This document shows, piece by piece, positions 6,072 to 15,000 of a DNA stretch of 44,064 nt. The DNA comes from Alphaproteobacteria bacterium (GTDB lineage Bacteria; Pseudomonadota; Alphaproteobacteria; UBA9219; RGZA01), in NCBI GenBank assembly GCA_021732145.1, contig JAKFVN010000012.1, forward strand, positions 1 to 44,064, written 5' to 3'. Below the pieces are notes generated by a model. That model was not told the DNA's origin. It saw nothing but the letters and a program-made list of their open reading frames with translations, and made no database searches. The first letter of the stretch is position 1; each line of letters begins with the position of its first letter. Position numbers and translations under genes: made by a program.

Positions 6072-7029
6072 TTTTAATCAGTGTGCCGCGGATATCGACC
6101 GCATCATCTATGGCTTTCTGCTCGCGAAGGAAATCGGCAAAAGGCTGCATGATATTGACCGCTGATTCATCAAGCTTTGCGCCCCAGTTGTGCCGCCAGA
6201 ATGCCTTGCGGATAACTTCTATCGGCATGCTCATTTCATTGGCGGTGATGGTGATGGCGGTAATTTCGTTAAACGGTATCCATGCCTTTGCTTCATCGAC
6301 CACATTGATTAAATCGACAAAGGCTTTGGCTTTCTGCGCCTTGAACGCATCGCGCACCACCAGAATGCTGTAGGCTTTTGCCTCGCTTTTTGGCAATGCG
6401 CGCATGTAGCGGTTTAATTCGCCCAGCTCCGCATAGGGTGAATTGACCGCCCAGCCATCGACGCTGCCTTCTTTCATTGCGGCGATGCCTTCGCGCACGG
6501 GCATTTCAGTAATGGCATAGTCGTTCGGCGTAACGCCGACCACGCCCAGCATCTTGCGCAGATTATAATGGTTGCTGCTGTTCGTTTGCACAATCACCTT
6601 GCGGTTGCGCATTTCCTCAACCGTTTTAATGGTGCTGTCGGTGGGTATCATCAATTGTTCCTGATAGGTTGATGTTACCTGCGCGATGAATACGGGAAGT
6701 TTTTGCGCCTTTGCCAAAATCACCGGCACGATGTCGCTCTCAAACACCACATCAATCTGGTCATTCAAGAAGGCCATGTTGACTTCTTCGGGCGTTGAAA
6801 ACGTTGAATACTCTACCTTGTATCCGTACTCGGCAAAGGCCTCTTCGAATTTCTTGTTGTGCTTGGCAACATAAAACGGCGCATAGCTGACCGATTGGCC
6901 GACGCGCCCGATACGCACGGTGCGTAAATCCACCACCACGACTTCCGGTTTTGGCCAGAACACAGCCGTGCTAAGCCCGATAACGAGAGAAAGGCCACCT
7001 ATAACGACTGCTTTTTCAAGATTGTTCAT
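6058..7029 (-). CDS. ABC transporter substrate-binding protein, NMT1/TauA (SsuA) type
   Basis: The ~323-aa product has an N-terminal membrane segment or lipid-free signal (NLEKAVVIGGLSLVIGLSTAVFW). It then has the two-lobed periplasmic-binding fold typical of nitrate/taurine/sulfonate/thiamine-precursor binding proteins: VGQSVSYAPFYVAKHNKKFEE, NDQIDVVFESDIVPV and EGSVDGWAVNSPYAELGE. No cognate permease or ATPase lies nearby. I choose the ATG at 7029 because it puts the hydrophobic segment at the N-terminus. The frame stays open to a TTG at 7080, which would add 17 unusual residues. It is transcribed divergently from the Cys-rich cluster and shares its upstream region. Confidence 0.75.
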   Translation of the reverse strand: MNNLEKAVVIGGLSLVIGLSTAVFWPKPEVVVVDLRTVRIGRVGQSVSYAPFYVAKHNKKFEEAFAEYGYKVEYSTFSTPEEVNMAFLNDQIDVVFESDIVPVILAKAQKLPVFIAQVTSTYQEQLMIPTDSTIKTVEEMRNRKVIVQTNSSNHYNLRKMLGVVGVTPNDYAITEMPVREGIAAMKEGSVDGWAVNSPYAELGELNRYMRALPKSEAKAYSILVVRDAFKAQKAKAFVDLINVVDEAKAWIPFNEITAITITANEMSMPIEVIRKAFWRHNWGAKLDESAVNIMQPFADFLREQKAIDDAVDIRGTLIKTTLE

Positions 7030-7206: not shown

Positions 7207-9618
7207 GTGAGACCGCGTAATTATTCAGTGTTATCAAAGGCCGAGGCAGAAGTTGATACCTCATATAATGATACAAGTGCCGAACTCGAATTTCTCCAAG
7301 AACTTGAAGATGCCATTGAAAGCATGGGCGCAAACCGCTTCACGGTGGATGGTCGCCCTGTAACGGTTGCTGCCGAAACCAGGGCAAAGCTGGGCAAAGC
7401 GATTAAAGAACTCACCCAAGTTCAAATCAATCAAATCGCCGATGGCGCAGAAAAATTCGGCAATAAAGACCAGCGCGTTTTGCTGGAAGTGGTGCAGGGG
7501 GAAGATAAGCCCGATGCGCAATTGAAGTTTCCGGATACCGATGTTACTGCCCAATACATTTATTATACCGAAGAACAAAAAGAAGATGCACGTTTGCTGA
7601 TGGAATTGAAGCGCATTCAATACCTGCAAAACGTTGTCATGAAGCAGTTGGAAATGACCGACCGCAGCGGTTCATCGCAAGTGGTGCAGGGCATGATTGC
7701 TGCTGGCCAGAAATTCGTGCAAGGCCTTACAGCGGTATTCAAGCAAGTTGAAACGCTTTCCAAGCAAATTGAAAAAGGCCTGCAAAACAAGGCCGACATG
7801 CCAACCGCGGAACAGAAAACTGCCGCGGTTGCGGCTATTACGCAAGCGTTGCGCGCATTGCCAGCGGTTGATCCGCGCCATATTGCAGTGAAGAATTTGG
7901 TGATGCAGCAGGTTGAGCGCTTGCAGGCAAAATTCAACATGGTGCCAGCCGCGCCGCGTGCTTCTGCAACCATTTTACAAATGAAAGCGCCAACCGCAGA
8001 CGCAACAAAAGGCGCAGCCCAACCAATGCGTGCTGAAACGCGCGCTGATGCTAAAACTGTACCGACAGCAAAAGGCGCGGATGCGGCAGTAAAAGGTAAT
8101 GATGCAAAGGTCGTAGCAACTGCCAAGACCGCGCCGCTCGCAAAGGTTGATGCGAAGGCTGCGCCAGTTGCGAAAGGCCAAACCGCAGAACTCCGCGTTG
8201 ATGCAAAGGGCCAACCGATTGCGCCGCTCGCAAAGGTTGATGCGAAGGCTGCGCCAGTTGCGAAAGGCCAAACCGCAGAACTCCGCGTTGATGCAAAGGG
8301 CCAACCGATTGCGCCGCTCGCAAAGGTTGATGCGCAAACTCAAACTCAAGTGAAGGGTACGCCCGTTGCCGTTCAACAAACCCGCGCGGATGCAGCGCAG
8401 CAAGTAAGGGGCGCAACCGTTACATCGATTACGCCAAATGTAACCGCGCAGCAGGCGATTGCCCGCGCAAGCACGGTGACATCACCTGTGCACACCATGC
8501 AGCAGTCGCTTGCCAATGCGCTGGGTATTACGCGGCCTGTAGCGGGCGTTGCGCAACCCGCGCCAGCGCAAATTGTAACTGCGCAAGTTCAGCACCAAGC
8601 GCAGCCGATTGCTCAACAGCAGGCGCAGCCACAACAATCTCAACCGCAAGCGCAGCAGGTTCAACCACAGCAGACGCAACAACAGGCACAGCCACAACAA
8701 AGCCAGCCGCAGGATCAAATTATTCAGCCTGTGCAACAGCAGCCACAACAAATCGAGCCGCAGCAAGTACAGCAACAGCCTGTACAACAGGTTGTGCACA
8801 TCAACCCGAATACAGGTGTGGCCAATCATGTTGAGCAGCCAATAAATATGCAGTCTATTGGGGCACAACAAACAGGCGCGCAAGTTACAGGCGCGCAGCC
8901 AATCGCGGTGCAACCGAATACAGTGCAACCTATTGTTACGCAGATAAGTGGGACACAGGTAAGCGGTACGCAAGTTGGTGGTACACAAGTTATCGGGGCA
9001 GCGCCCATTGTTGCTCCGCAGCAGGGCCAGCCGGTTGTCGCGCAAGTTGTTATTGATAATAAAGGTCAGCCGATTGTGGCTGATGCAGGTGTGAAGGGCG
9101 TTGAAGTGCGCTCCGTCCCTGCTGGCAGTGAAGCCCGCGCCGATACAACCATTGCCAAAGGCCAGCCAGCCGAAGCGCGTCAAACCGATAAATCACAGCC
9201 AGCGGAAGATAAGAAGGCTGACAACAAAGGCGTTGAAAACAAATTGCCTGAACGCCCAACTGAGCGCACCGAAGCAAAGGGCGGTGAACAGGAGATAAAA
9301 GAAAAGAAAGAGGTCAAGGTTGATGAAGGCCCATGCGGTGGTTGTGGCCGAAAGGGTATAGGATGCGGTACCTGTGGTATTACTGGAACGGTAAAAACCA
9401 ATTTAATTCCAAGCGACAAGAATGTTGATGAAGCGAAGAAAACATTTCCAGACAACGCAAACCCATGCACGAGCGGTAATTGTGGTGGTTGTAGAAAATG
9501 TGCCCGCGCTGACGCAGATCCTGCCGTAACAGCAAATGCAACCAAAGATGCGCAGGCAAAATATGGGCCGCGCCGCGCAGCAACCGTATCAGCGCCAGCG
9601 CCAGGAAAGGCAGCATAA
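7207..9618 (+). CDS. Large low-complexity protein with Cys-rich C-terminal zinc-finger-like region
   Basis: I do not recognise this 803-aa protein. Residues 1-260 appear folded and largely helical (for example KAIKELTQVQINQIADGAEKF). Residues ~260-700 are low complexity. They hold Ala/Lys repeats (30-aa units), a Gln/Pro-rich tract near 470-535, a run of short repeats of the type xGTQV or TGAQ, and a charged Lys/Glu linker. The C-terminus has two Cys clusters: CGGCGRKGIGCGTCG (C710, C713, C720, C723; two CxxC pairs reminiscent of the DnaJ zinc centre) and CTSGNCGGCRKC (C754, C759, C762, C765). There is no signal peptide. The start is a GTG with AGGA about eight bases upstream. It is the first gene of a tight cluster downstream of Fur-like dyads, so a metal-responsive role is inferred. 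Confidence 0.7.
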   Translation: MRPRNYSVLSKAEAEVDTSYNDTSAELEFLQELEDAIESMGANRFTVDGRPVTVAAETRAKLGKAIKELTQVQINQIADGAEKFGNKDQRVLLEVVQGEDKPDAQLKFPDTDVTAQYIYYTEEQKEDARLLMELKRIQYLQNVVMKQLEMTDRSGSSQVVQGMIAAGQKFVQGLTAVFKQVETLSKQIEKGLQNKADMPTAEQKTAAVAAITQALRALPAVDPRHIAVKNLVMQQVERLQAKFNMVPAAPRASATILQMKAPTADATKGAAQPMRAETRADAKTVPTAKGADAAVKGNDAKVVATAKTAPLAKVDAKAAPVAKGQTAELRVDAKGQPIAPLAKVDAKAAPVAKGQTAELRVDAKGQPIAPLAKVDAQTQTQVKGTPVAVQQTRADAAQQVRGATVTSITPNVTAQQAIARASTVTSPVHTMQQSLANALGITRPVAGVAQPAPAQIVTAQVQHQAQPIAQQQAQPQQSQPQAQQVQPQQTQQQAQPQQSQPQDQIIQPVQQQPQQIEPQQVQQQPVQQVVHINPNTGVANHVEQPINMQSIGAQQTGAQVTGAQPIAVQPNTVQPIVTQISGTQVSGTQVGGTQVIGAAPIVAPQQGQPVVAQVVIDNKGQPIVADAGVKGVEVRSVPAGSEARADTTIAKGQPAEARQTDKSQPAEDKKADNKGVENKLPERPTERTEAKGGEQEIKEKKEVKVDEGPCGGCGRKGIGCGTCGITGTVKTNLIPSDKNVDEAKKTFPDNANPCTSGNCGGCRKCARADADPAVTANATKDAQAKYGPRRAATVSAPAPGKAA
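8131..8334 (+). repeat. 90-bp tandem repeat (two full copies plus 24 bp)
   Basis: 8131-8220 and 8221-8310 are identical 90-bp units, followed by a 24-bp partial third copy. They encode 30-residue units starting APLAKVDAKAAPVAKG. Full identity at all codon positions implies a very recent duplication. Confidence 0.95.
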
Positions 9619-9812: not shown

Positions 9813-10394
9813 ATGGTACAATTGAATATCAATAATGGTGCATCCGGAATGCCTTCACCAGACGGCACGCTGGGCTTGACCGATTGCGGTACATGCGCAA
9901 CCCACGTTTCAGATTGCATCACAGGTATTTTGGGACAAGCTGTTTTGTCTGCGCTGGAAATCACGCGCAACGCATTTGCAAATAAAGAAGCACAGCTTGA
10001 CCCGCACAATCCGGAAGATGTTGATTACCTTTATAACATCGTCAGCGATGTGGTTGCATCGCGTCCTGAATTGAAAGTGGCAATGCCAACCGATCCTGCT
10101 GAAATTGCAAAGGTGAAGGCACGTATCCCTGAAGCAATCCGCGAAGGGCAGGCGGTATATGCCGCAGTTGGCATTATTGCTACGCGCTTGCAGGCATCAC
10201 CTGGCGCTAAACCCGCTTCGCTTATCAACCCAACCAATGCCGGCGATTTGGATGCTGTGTTTGGAAAAGTGGTTGAAACCTTCAAGGGCGAATTGCCGCG
10301 CTTGGTATCTGATGCAGAAGAAATTAAAGCTTACAGAAGCCGCATGGGTTCTGCGGTTGTTACCGCAATCCGCGCGATGCCAAATCCTGCATAA
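9813..10394 (+). CDS. Conserved-looking hypothetical protein of the Cys cluster
   Basis: The 193-aa product is predicted mainly helical. An N-terminal CGTCATHVSDC (C25, C28, C35) is its only cysteine motif; the remainder has amphipathic helices such as ALEITRNAFANKEAQLD and RLVSDAEEIKAYRSRMGSAVV. AAGGAGA lies five to six bases before the ATG, a strong ribosome-binding site. It is 40 bp downstream of the 50-aa gene and is followed by a strong terminator, so it ends the cluster. Function unknown. Confidence 0.7.
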   Translation: MVQLNINNGASGMPSPDGTLGLTDCGTCATHVSDCITGILGQAVLSALEITRNAFANKEAQLDPHNPEDVDYLYNIVSDVVASRPELKVAMPTDPAEIAKVKARIPEAIREGQAVYAAVGIIATRLQASPGAKPASLINPTNAGDLDAVFGKVVETFKGELPRLVSDAEEIKAYRSRMGSAVVTAIRAMPNPA

Positions 10395-10414
10395 TCTGGT
10401 TTGGATAAGACATT

Positions 10415-10448
10415 AAAAAACCCGCTTCATCACTGAAGCGGGTTTTTT
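10415..10448. terminator. Bidirectional intrinsic terminator
   Basis: AAAAAACCCGCTTCA pairs with TGAAGCGGGTTTTTT over a TCAC loop. It ends the 7207-10394 cluster and, on the other strand, rpmE. Confidence 0.95.
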
Positions 10449-10509
10449 TAATTCTATACTTATTAGAGCGATGCCTCTGCGGTTCCCGCAACCGGCCCTG
10501 CTTTCATAA

Positions 10510-10821
10510 TTACTTTTTCTTCTTTGCGTCTGGCTTGTCGCTGGCTTTCTTTTCAGCCTTGTTCGCGCTGCCAGTTACCTTTTCGCCTTCCTTGTGGCCC
10601 TTAACATCCACGATGCCAGCAAAACGGTTTTTGAACTTATCGAGCTGACCGCCGCGGCCAATCAACTTGGAAATACCAGTCCAAGCCGGGTGGGTCTTCG
10701 GGTCGATGTCGAGGCGCATGGTATCGCCAGCCTTACCCCAGGTGGTGCGTGTTTCAAACTCGCTGCCATCGGTCATAATGACCTTGATGGTGTGATAATC
10801 GGGGTGAATTTTTTCTTTCAT
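10510..10821 (-). CDS. rpmE: 50S ribosomal protein L31
   Basis: The 103-aa L31 begins [20 protein letters not shown] and has the family core ([25 protein letters not shown]). The cysteines of the zinc-binding form are absent, so it is a C-minus type that does not need zinc. A Lys/Asp/Ala-rich tail of about 30 residues lengthens it beyond the usual ~70, as in many alphaproteobacteria. AAGGA precedes the ATG. It is a single gene. Confidence 0.95.
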
Positions 10822-10974
10822 AGCTTATTCCTTAGTATTGCAAGCGGCGGTTATAGACAGCCAAACCATGCAACGCAAGGGGTTTTCGCGGTTAAACAAT
10901 TAATTCTATTCGCCCGTCAAACGATGTTAAAATGATGCTTATCATTCAATGATATGAGTGTTAAAGAATGTGGC

Positions 10975-11331
10975 ATGAATTTTTTAAGATTTAGAGCAGC
11001 GCAGTTTTTTGCAGATCTTGCCCTTGTAGGCGGGCTGGTGATTACCATGCCCATTCCGCCTGCACATGGCCAGCAATCGCAACCAACCAAGAACCCATCT
11101 GCTTTGGCGCGGGTTTGCGCGGATGAATTAAAGGCAGGAATTGCACAAAAGTACCATTATATTGGGGGTTCGCGGGGGTATAACGTGCTAACCACTAACC
11201 CAAAGACCGATTTATTTGAGCCTTGCCGCTTCGATTTCGAAGGAAATATGACGGAAGGCGCAGCGGGACGCCCATCATGCAGCATTGGCAAGCGCATTGC
11301 CGCCTGTTTAAAGCAAAAACTGCAATCATAA
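10975..11331 (+). CDS. Small secreted four-cysteine protein, copy 1
   Basis: Small exported protein of about 118 aa (125 if the ATG at 10954 is used). The N-terminal signal peptide (FFADLALVGGLVITMPIPPAHG) has a likely cleavage after AHG. The mature part holds four cysteines spaced C-x35-C-x17-C-x8-C, with GRPSC before the last pair. The next gene has the same pattern, so these are probable tandem paralogues of a small periplasmic or secreted family stabilised by disulfides. I do not recognise the family. The ATG at 10975 gives a more typical signal peptide than the upstream one. Confidence 0.6.
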   Translation: MNFLRFRAAQFFADLALVGGLVITMPIPPAHGQQSQPTKNPSALARVCADELKAGIAQKYHYIGGSRGYNVLTTNPKTDLFEPCRFDFEGNMTEGAAGRPSCSIGKRIAACLKQKLQS

Positions 11332-11421
11332 CGACCCAAATCATAACGATTAAGAAAATATTTTTATTTTCAGGCGATAGCGCTTAAAACTACGCTCACT
11401 TCTATATTTTCAAGGTGATTT

Positions 11422-11799
11422 ATGACGCGTCCGATTATGGCATATGCTGCATTAGCAGGGTTAGGTGCAGGATTAGCCATGCCAGTGCAAGCGCAAGAAA
11501 GAAGCCCCGTTATTGAACAACTGATGCGTGTTATGAAATTGAGAGAATGCGCCAAAAAAGCAGGCGAGCAATTGAATACCACGGTTGATTTGATGGGAAA
11601 TGGCACAAAAGTTGGCGTTATTGTACCTGCGCCCGCCCCGCATACCGGAAAATTTGATGGCTGCGTTATTCACGAAGATGGCAGTTTAACCGATACAAAA
11701 GGCCGCGCGCCCATACCCGGCAGGCCAGCCTGCGCCGTTGCCGACTTAATTAAAAAGTGCATGGCAGGCGAAGAGCCAGCGCCCGTGCCCGGAAGTTAA
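11422..11799 (+). CDS. Small secreted four-cysteine protein, copy 2
   Basis: This 125-aa protein has a classical signal peptide (MAYAALAGLGAGLAMPVQAQ, cleavage after VQA). The mature domain has four cysteines spaced C-x37-C-x22-C-x8-C with GRPAC before the last pair, which closely matches the preceding gene. It lies 90 bp downstream of copy 1 on the same strand. Function unknown. Confidence 0.65.
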   Translation: MTRPIMAYAALAGLGAGLAMPVQAQERSPVIEQLMRVMKLRECAKKAGEQLNTTVDLMGNGTKVGVIVPAPAPHTGKFDGCVIHEDGSLTDTKGRAPIPGRPACAVADLIKKCMAGEEPAPVPGS

Positions 11800-12056
11800 T
11801 AAGACTTGAAGCCCTGCCTTTGCGGCTTATGTGGCGGTGGCATTAAAAAACTGTAAATTCTGCTTGCATGACCCACTAAAATATGGTGATTCACGCCTCG
11901 TGCACACTTGCTGACAATAAAGATACCCGATAACACGCATCACTGATCAAAGGTGATAGGCCGCGTGCCCAGCTTTTTTTGCTCTGGGGTTGTTTTCGCT
12001 TTTTGTCTCTTTTGCAATTGCGCCGCGCAAACACTTTTGACCCTTAAGGGAATGAC
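11800..12056 (+). promoter_or_regulatory. Leader region of rpoBC
   Basis: In most bacteria rpoB follows rplL directly. Here it is preceded by unrelated genes, so its promoter must lie in this 257-bp spacer. A possible TTGCTG/GATAAC pair (11908-11934) has only 15-bp spacing and is weak. A hairpin ATCAC/GTGAT (about 11939-11957) precedes a T-run near 11975 that could act as an attenuator. AAGGGA lies before the rpoB start. Confidence 0.4.
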
Positions 12057-15000
12057 ATGGCCACGATTCTAAAAACAAAAGAAATTCTCCCAGATACAAA
12101 CAGCTTCACCGGACGCCAGCGCATCCGCAAGAGTTTTGGTCGCATCAGTGAAGTGGTGTCGATGCCAAATCTCATCGAAGTGCAACGCCAATCCTATGAA
12201 GCATTCTTGCAGATGGGCACACCTGCAACTGGCCGCACCGTTACCGGTCTTCAAGAAGTTTTCAAATCCGTTTTCCCGATTAAAGATTTTGCAGAGCGCG
12301 CTGTTCTTGATTTCGTTTCCTACGAATTGGAAGAACCAAAATACGACGTTGAAGAATGCCAGCAACGCGGCATGACCTTTGCCGCGCCATTGCGCGTAAC
12401 CCTTCGTTTGTCGGTGTTTGACGTGGATGAAACCACGGGCCTGCGCTCCATCCGCGACATCAAGGAACAAGATGTTTACATGGGCGATATGCCATTGATG
12501 ACCAATAACGGTACGTTTGTTATCAACGGAACCGAACGCGTTATCGTATCCCAGATGCACCGTTCACCGGGCGTATTCTTTGACCATGACAATGGCAAGA
12601 CCCACGCATCCGGCAAATTCCTGTTTGCTGCGCGCGTCATTCCTTACCGCGGTTCATGGCTCGACTTCGAATTCGATGCGAAGGATATTTTGTATGTTCG
12701 TATCGACCGTCGCCGCAAACTGCCAGTAACCACGTTGATGTATGCGTTGGACGACGAAGCAACTGAAAAGATGCGCGCGAAACGCGATGCACAGGAAAAG
12801 CCATTAGCTCCTGGTGAAGCCATTGGCATGAGCAAGGAAGAGATTCTTTCCTCCATCTACGAAACCAAGACCTATGACCGCACCAAGACCGGTTGGAAGA
12901 CCCGCTACATCGCAGAAAACTGGCGCGGCGTGAAGCTGACCCATGACCTTATCAACGCCAAGGGCGGTGAAGTGGTGATGGAAGCCGGCGCGAAGATTAC
13001 CGCGCGCAAGGCAAAGCAACTGGAAGAAGAAGGTCTGCGTGAAATTCTCATCCAGTCCGAGCAATTGATGGGCCAATACCTTGCTCAAGACGTAATTGAT
13101 GCCAAGACCGGCCTCGTGCTGCATGAAGCGGGTGATGAAATCACCAAGGACATGCTCGACAACTTTGCTGAACTGAACACGAAGGAAATTCCTGTTCTGG
13201 CGATTGACCACGTAAACGTTGGCCCATACCTTCGTTCAACGATGATGGTTGACCGCAACTCCACCCGTGAAGAAGCGCTGATCGACATCTACCGCGTGAT
13301 GCGTCCGGGTGAACCACCAACCCTGGAATCCGCTGAAGCATTGTTCCGCGGATTGTTCTTTGATCTGGAACGCTATGACTTGTCACCAGTGGGCCGCGTA
13401 AAAATCAATGGCCGCTTGAATGTTCAAGCTGCAGACACGGTACGTGTACTGCGCAAGGCTGACATCATTTCCATCATCAAGATTTTGCACGACCTGAAAG
13501 ATGGTCGCGGCGAAGTGGATGATATCGATCACTTGGGTAACCGCCGTGTTCGCTCGGTGGGTGAACTCATGGAAAACCAATACCGCGTTGGCTTGCTGCG
13601 CATGGAACGCGCCATCAAGGAACGCATGGGTTCGGTTGAAATCGACACCGTGATGCCATCTGACCTTGTGAACGCAAAGCCTGCGGCTGCTGCGGTTCGT
13701 GAATTCTTTGGTTCATCCCAGCTTTCACAATTTATGGATCAAACCAATCCACTTTCCGAAATTACCCATAAGCGCCGTTTATCAGCGTTGGGCCCCGGTG
13801 GTTTGACACGTGAACGCGCAGGCTTTGAAGTACGCGACGTTCATCCAACCCATTATGGCCGTATCTGCCCGATTGAAACACCGGAAGGCCCGAATATCGG
13901 TCTGATCAACTCGCTCGCAACCTACGCACAGGTCAATCCATACGGCTTTATCGAAACGCCATATCGCCGCGTTTCAAAGAGCAAGGTGATGGACGAAGTT
14001 GTGTATATGAGCGCGATGGAAGAAGGTCAGCATGTGGTGGCGCAAGCCAACGCTGCGCTCGACGCGTCGGGTAAGCTAACAGCGGAACTCGTCTCCTGCC
14101 GTAAGGGCGGTGAGTACATGATGCTCCCACCAGACCAAATCGAATACATCGACGTAAGCCCTAAGCAGCTCGTTTCCGTTGCTGCGGCGCTTATTCCATT
14201 CCTTGAAAACGATGACGCGAACCGCGCGCTCATGGGCTCCAACATGCAACGTCAGGCTGTGCCGTTGTTGCAATCGGATGCTCCGCTCGTTGGTACAGGT
14301 ATGGAAGGCACGGTTGCACGCGATAGCGGCGTGACCGTTGTTGCAAAACGCGCAGGTATCGTTGACCAGGTTGACGCAACCCGCGTGGTTGTTCGTGTGA
14401 ACGATGAAAAGGCCACCAAGAATAGCGGCCTTGGCGTTGATATTTACAATCTTCTCAAGTTCCAACGTTCCAACCAAAACACCTGCATTACGCAGCGCCC
14501 ATTGGTGCGCGTAGGCGATGTGGTGAAGGCGGGCGATATCATCGCTGACGGCCCATCCACCCAGCTTGGTGAATTGGCGCTTGGCCGTAACGTGCTCGTC
14601 GCGTTCATGCCATGGAATGGTTACAACTTCGAAGATAGTATTCTGATTTCCGAACGTATTGTGCGCGATGACGTATTCACATCTATTCACATCGAAGAAT
14701 TCGAAGTGATGGCACGTGATACCAAGCTCGGTCAGGAAGAAATCACGAGAGATATTCCAAACGTGGGCGAAGAAGCACTTAAGAACCTCGATGAAGCAGG
14801 TATTGTTTACATCGGCGCAGAAGTGAACCCAGGTGACATTTTGGTAGGTAAAGTCACACCGAAAGGTGAATCACCTATGACGCCGGAAGAAAAATTGCTG
14901 CGCGCCATTTTCGGTGAAAAGTCAGCTGACGTTCGCGATAGCTCTTTGAAGGTTCCACCAGGTGTATCTGGAACAATCGTGGAAGTGCGCGTGTTTAATC

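What the first reader, a model, noticed from the sequence alone, without database searches (positions are those of the whole stretch)
10975..11799. Tandem paralogues of an unrecognised secreted four-cysteine family
Two adjacent genes encode small exported proteins that share C-x35/37-C-x17/22-C-x8-C and a GRP[SA]C motif, with very little other identity. Strict cysteine spacing with divergent sequence suggests a disulfide-stabilised fold under diversifying or relaxed selection, such as a secreted effector, inhibitor or envelope factor.
Basis: partly seen in the sequence, partly recalled or inferred. Interest (0 to 1): 0.5.

Follow-up and report, generated by a model that had tools for sequence, protein, structure and literature searches.

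The report
Orphan exported four-cysteine protein pair
Two neighbouring bacterial genes make small, probably exported proteins that look like old, very different copies of one another with four matching cysteines; relatives were found only in one bacterial genus and their job is unknown, so this is a genuine but modest orphan family.

Summary
Genes at 10975-11331 and 11422-11799 encode small proteins with signal-peptide-like N-termini and cysteine spacings 35/17/8 and 37/22/8. They are homologous: each is the other's only further match in its genome up to E 10, BLASTP E is 2e-5, and 0 of 5000 shuffles reach the score even with cysteines fixed. With cysteines masked, 204 of 5000 do. Separate predictions give the same order, helix-four strands-helix, with cysteines in equivalent elements (the second has modest confidence).

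Gene 1 has an 82% identical orthologue at the same place in a sister species, with all four cysteines and dN/dS 0.135. That is purifying, not diversifying or relaxed, selection. "GRPSC" reads "ARPSC" there. Gene 2 is absent from that genome; both are absent from the one genome of the sister genus that could be read at this place.

No convincing relative outside the genus appeared in searches of 33 order-, 385 class- and 398 phylum-level genomes, pattern scans of genome and viral contigs, or four family libraries. Most likely a genus-restricted, disulfide-stabilised envelope or secreted binding domain; function is not shown.

The parts
10930..10967 (+). 38-bp block just upstream of gene 1, identical in the sister genome; holds half-sites AATGAT-gctt-ATCATT-c-AATGAT; probably promoter, operator or leader
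   Evidence: DNA alignment of the two genomes. Of 14 places in the genome with AATGATNNNNATCATT at up to one mismatch (2 for the reversed control) the only other perfect one lies inside an enolase-like ORF (name recalled from the sequence); the other 12 were not inspected, so a regulon is not shown
10975..11331 (+). Gene 1 (P0001, 118 aa): probably exported four-cysteine protein, cysteines at residues 48, 84, 102, 111
   Evidence: orthologue G002:C16:6008-6352 82% identical, dN/dS 0.135; predicted helix-four strands-helix domain
10975..11070 (+). probable Sec signal peptide of gene 1 (cut near AHG|Q33)
   Evidence: sequence inspection; residues 1-36 have pLDDT below 50, outside the folded domain; no signal-peptide predictor was available
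11422..11799 (+). Gene 2 (P0002, 125 aa): tandem paralogue, cysteines at residues 43, 81, 104, 113
   Evidence: same predicted order of elements from its single sequence; absent from the sister genome
11422..11493 (+). probable Sec signal peptide of gene 2 (cut near VQA|Q25)
   Evidence: sequence inspection

Best explanation
A genus-restricted family of small exported proteins. Each has a signal peptide and one compact domain (helix, four strands, helix) expected to be locked by two disulfides, and probably sits in the periplasm or outside the cell, where it binds a partner rather than acting as an enzyme. Gene 1 is the conserved member, kept by purifying selection under its own promoter region; gene 2 is an old, diverged tandem copy that is dispensable in the sister species (lost there, or gained here). 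Shown: homology, cysteine equivalence, purifying selection on gene 1, presence and absence. Inferred: export, disulfide formation, binding role.
For: Mutual and only further match of the neighbours in the genome and BLASTP E 2e-5; shuffle tests. Gene 1 predicted with a three-row alignment: H41-53, E60-64, E69-74, E81-86, E92-94, H100-117, pLDDT 82-91 by ten-residue blocks from residue 41. Gene 2 predicted from its single sequence: H29-51, E56-60, E63-67, E81-83, E89-91, H102-114. In both models Cys1 falls in helix 1, Cys2 in strand 3, and Cys3 and Cys4 in the last helix. Orthologue with all four cysteines and dN/dS 0.135. Four cysteines and signal-like N-termini in all three sequences. Conserved block upstream of gene 1.
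Against: Only three sequences exist, so conservation is thinly sampled. The gene 2 model has modest confidence (mean pLDDT 66 in the best of five models, 52.5-58.7 in the others), and its best structural neighbours (SMC and Rad50 head domains) are not those of gene 1 (RnlA, AMPK), though RnlA and AMPK chains are in both lists. The cysteine-masked similarity is weak (204 of 5000 shuffles). No functional partner, operon or significant fold match supports a binding role. Disulfide pairing was not determined.
Confidence: 0.5

Rival explanations
1. The proteins are secreted antagonistic or host- or prey-directed effectors, or inhibitors of such, and the tandem copy diverged in an arms race.
For: Small, exported-looking, disulfide-type, lineage-restricted, with a tandem copy gained or lost between species.
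Against: Gene 1 evolves under purifying selection (dN/dS 0.135). No further ORF of 70 aa or more lies between gene 2 and rpoB, no PADLOC or PHROGs match, and only these two copies in the genome apart from one weak profile match at E 0.094.
Confidence: 0.2
2. The two genes are not homologous; the similarity comes from chance or convergence on cysteine spacing in two separate small exported proteins.
For: 28% identity over 54 columns; with cysteines masked 204 of 5000 shuffles match the score.
Against: Adjacency, the only mutual match in the genome, 0 of 5000 with cysteines fixed, and the same predicted element order from separate inputs. A loose four-cysteine pattern scan of 89 sequences (337,750 bases, overlapping loci counted more than once) found only these two proteins, their orthologue and one match in an 866-residue frame of another genome (L008).
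Confidence: 0.07
3. Gene 2 is a decaying or recently gained copy without function, and only gene 1 matters.
For: Gene 2 is missing in the sister genome and no convincing orthologue was found among 96 relatives.
Against: The ORF is intact, with a signal-like N-terminus, a ribosome-binding-like AAGG before the start, and all four cysteines at equivalent places. Divergence from gene 1 is far larger than between the species' gene 1 copies, which points to an old copy kept open (synonymous distance saturated).
Confidence: 0.2

Closest known systems
KA1-type domains of AMPK, Chk1 and MARK3 kinases
   Same: Similar order of helix, strands, helix; VIA-align Z 5.1 over 72 residues at 3.4 A (AMPK chain 4eak_A) for gene 1 and 5.1 over 76 residues at 4.1 A (6c9j_A) for gene 2. 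That the AMPK segment is a KA1-type domain is recalled; the Chk1 and MARK3 rows name it
   Different: Eukaryotic and intracellular (recalled); no sequence match; Z under 8 may mean only a common arrangement (tool note)
N-terminal domain of RnlA toxin (E. coli)
   Same: Similar arrangement: Z 5.2 over 67 residues at 2.7 A for gene 1 and 4.4 over 71 at 3.1 A for gene 2
   Different: A small part of a 344-residue protein; RnlA is not among the sequence matches in the PDB searches
BamC N-terminal domain
   Same: Envelope protein with a helix-and-sheet domain, Z 3.8 over 63 residues at 3.6 A for gene 1
   Different: Weak match, tied with unrelated folds; not among the rows shown for gene 2; no sequence match

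Membership tests
any Pfam, NCBIfam, PHROGs or PADLOC family | match to a family profile | tested here: not met
   0 families for genes 1 and 2 in each library, at E limits of 1, 10, 10 and 1; HMMER filters drop most weak matches
KA1 domain | KA1 fold, matched by structure | tested here: inconclusive
   Z about 4-5, within the range that may be only a common arrangement; no Foldseek match at E <= 0.001
RnlA N-terminal domain | same fold, matched by structure | tested here: inconclusive
   Z 5.2 and 4.4
BamC | BamC domain fold matched by structure | tested here: inconclusive
   Z 3.8 for gene 1
Sec-exported disulfide proteins (general kind) | cleavable N-terminal signal peptide | not testable with these tools
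   Hydrophobic N-termini ending AHG|Q and VQA|Q read by eye; no predictor or experiment
Sec-exported disulfide proteins (general kind) | paired conserved cysteines | tested here: inconclusive
   Four cysteines kept in all three sequences; pairing not visible without coordinates

The most novel reading that the evidence does not exclude
A protein family that arose recently within one alphaproteobacterial lineage, already exported and disulfide-stabilised, and duplicated in place next to rpoB, so that a young protein fold and its paralogue can be followed between sister species.
Probability: 0.15. Interest if true: 0.45.

Novelty: new member of a known kind. Interest (0 to 1): 0.25.

Why it matters
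Lineage-restricted small exported proteins are, from general knowledge, common and mostly uncharacterised. In this pair one member is under measurable purifying selection, the other is a diverged tandem copy present in only one of the two genomes of the genus that could be assessed, and gene 1 has a reasonably confident predicted domain that can be tested. It would matter mainly as a case of orphan-gene birth, duplication and loss in a bacterial envelope.

Tried and rejected
Looked for further members and rejected the weak matches. P0002 in 96 relatives (own genome included): 28 of 96 with E <= 1, best non-self 0.003 with five stops in frame. P0001 in the same 96: 28 of 96, only the window's genome and G002 convincing. 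Profile A1 in the order: 4 of 33 at E <= 0.1, two of them weak (0.037 with two stops, and 0.096); the own genome also gave a third, weak match at C6:50688-50846, E 0.094, in a 325-residue frame. Class sample: 2 of 385 at E <= 0.01, one of them weak (0.0055). Phylum sample: 3 of 398, the two others at 3.4e-4 with three stops in frame and 0.0087. For many genomes only about 11 of the first-look candidates were scored, so distant members could be missed. None of the loci brought in for these weak matches (L072, L073, L075, L076, L087, L088) holds the four-cysteine pattern; I did not align them one by one. Genome contigs scanned twice by degenerate peptide patterns, 43 and 161 stretches, none confirmed; viral contigs 41, none. 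Plasmids with P0001: 3 Shinella records at E 0.7, under an oxidoreductase; phages with P0002: none; the other two combinations were not run. PDB by sequence: 8 matches to the profile, best E 0.21 (archease), none for P0002.

A DNA pattern for RPxC-x8-C in the own genome gave 16 forward and 17 reverse matches (reversed control 10 and 13). Of the 30 loci listed and scanned, only that of gene 1 holds the four-cysteine pattern (in genes 1 and 2); 3 matches without a locus were not checked. The pattern takes CGN arginine only and itself misses gene 2, so this test is partial.

Considered a metal-type operator from the AATGAT half-sites: 14 places with up to one mismatch against 2 for the reversed control, the other perfect one inside a coding frame, the rest not inspected; no regulon is claimed. 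The consensus promoter scan found no plus-strand promoter-like site in 10380-12100 and no more sites than shuffles.

Fold searches: no Foldseek hit at E <= 0.001 in PDB for either model. In viral models, gene 1's best was E 0.013 to an unnamed 75-residue protein (Foldseek probability 0.99, TM-score 0.39 by query), followed by mostly uncharacterised phage proteins; treated as a common small fold, not pursued. Gene 2 was not searched in the viral library. The same-genus genome G001 cannot be assessed: its contig ends 42 bases after its L31 match, and the rpoB start was not found. Papers: two searches, listings only, nothing read; they were not a search for this family in print.

Full report
What is there. 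The window is a whole contig (C17) of a 2.09 Mb genome in 54 contigs. Its RpoB start resembles alphaproteobacterial RpoB most: of 66 plasmid-collection records matched, the six above 60% identity are Methylobacterium, Shinella and four Sinorhizobium (63.7-65.3%); the next listed, Shewanella, Aeromonas and Proteus, have 50-51%. Between a ribosomal protein L31 gene (10510-10821, minus strand; Pfam E 5e-22) and rpoB (12057) lie two plus-strand genes: gene 1, 10975-11331, 118 aa, and gene 2, 11422-11799, 125 aa.

Is the observation more than chance? Cysteine spacings are 35/17/8 and 37/22/8. BLASTP of the pair gives E 2e-5, 15 of 54 identical. In six-frame searches of the whole genome the only other match of each protein up to E 10 is its neighbour. 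Mature-part shuffles: 0 of 5000 reach the score, also with cysteines held fixed; for the orthologue against gene 2, 0 of 5000 and 1 of 5000; with cysteines masked, 204 of 5000. So homology is well supported, but it leans on the cysteine columns.

Fold. Gene 1 with a three-row alignment gives helix 41-53, strands 60-64, 69-74, 81-86, 92-94, helix 100-117, with pLDDT 82-91 by ten-residue blocks from residue 41 and mean 71.9 overall. Gene 2 folded from its single sequence gives helix 29-51, strands 56-60, 63-67, 81-83, 89-91, helix 102-114; mean pLDDT 66 in the best model and 52.5-58.7 in the other four. Gene 2's run used no alignment, so it did not borrow from gene 1. The four cysteines fall in the same elements in both. 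Structural neighbours are weak in both cases: gene 1 best RnlA and AMPK chains (Z 5.2 and 5.1); gene 2 best SMC and Rad50 head domains (Z 5.4 and below), with AMPK (5.1) and RnlA (4.5) further down. The tool itself says such Z may reflect only a common arrangement. No Foldseek hit reached E 0.001. Pairing of the cysteines was not seen; Cys1-Cys4 and Cys2-Cys3 would fit the order of elements, but that is a guess.

Evolution. A sister genome of the same genus (G002) has gene 1 at the same place, 82% identical, all cysteines kept, with ARPSC in place of GRPSC. Nei-Gojobori dN/dS is 0.135 for gene 1, against 0.025 for rpoB, 0.057 for L31, 0.067 for the NMT1-like gene and 0.25-0.26 for the two hypothetical genes at 7207 and 9813. 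Gene 2 is absent there: the alignment has a gap of its whole length between gene 1 and the rpoB upstream region, and neither protein nor profile searches found it elsewhere in G002. In G003, a different genus of the same family, no gene with the pattern lies between L31 and rpoB and neither protein matches. G001 of the same genus is not informative because its contig ends just past L31. So gene 2 is present in 1 of 2 assessable genomes of the genus, gene 1 in 2 of 2. Distance between genes 1 and 2 is saturated at synonymous sites, so the copy is older than the species split, or diverged fast; loss in G002 is then the simpler reading, though with two genomes gain cannot be excluded.

Reach. The family was not found convincingly beyond the genus in the order (33 genomes), a class sample (385), a phylum sample (398), two degenerate-pattern scans of genome contigs, viral contigs, plasmids (gene 1) or phages (gene 2). 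The degenerate scans find mainly near relatives, and the three-row profile is thin, so very distant relatives are not excluded. No curated family matches.

How it most likely works. The signal-like N-termini, four conserved cysteines and compact predicted domain suggest an envelope or secreted protein stabilised by two disulfides. With no catalytic-family match, a binding role is the most likely, held at low confidence. The 38-bp block upstream of gene 1 (10930-10967), identical in both genomes, suggests its own promoter region, but a consensus scan found no plus-strand sigma-70-like site there and the motif is not shown to define a regulon.

Verdict. It is a new orphan family of an ordinary kind.

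Noticed in passing
10467-10502: A 36-nt element just beyond the L31 stop codon recurs in the genome: 4 places with up to 3 mismatches against 0 for the reversed control, also beside L31 in G002 and with short matches at other places in G001, G002 and G004. Either strand folds as a hairpin (-13.2 and -15.0 kcal/mol, no shuffle control), and at copy L131 the flanks look like inverted repeats. It looks like a small interspersed palindromic repeat; Rfam finds only two tRNAs in the window.
   Followed up: partly
7207-9618 and 9813-10394: Two neighbouring hypothetical genes (803 and 193 aa; the larger with internal repeats and a cysteine-rich C-terminal part by eye), with no Pfam family above its cut-off, are kept in G002 at 65% and 61% identity and dN/dS about 0.25.
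   Followed up: no
L129 end (G001:C24) and L061 about 6500-6560: The G001 contig breaks inside a sequence that also lies between L31 and gene 1 in G002 ('GCTCGCGGGTCGGC'), perhaps a second interspersed repeat that stops assembly.
   Followed up: no
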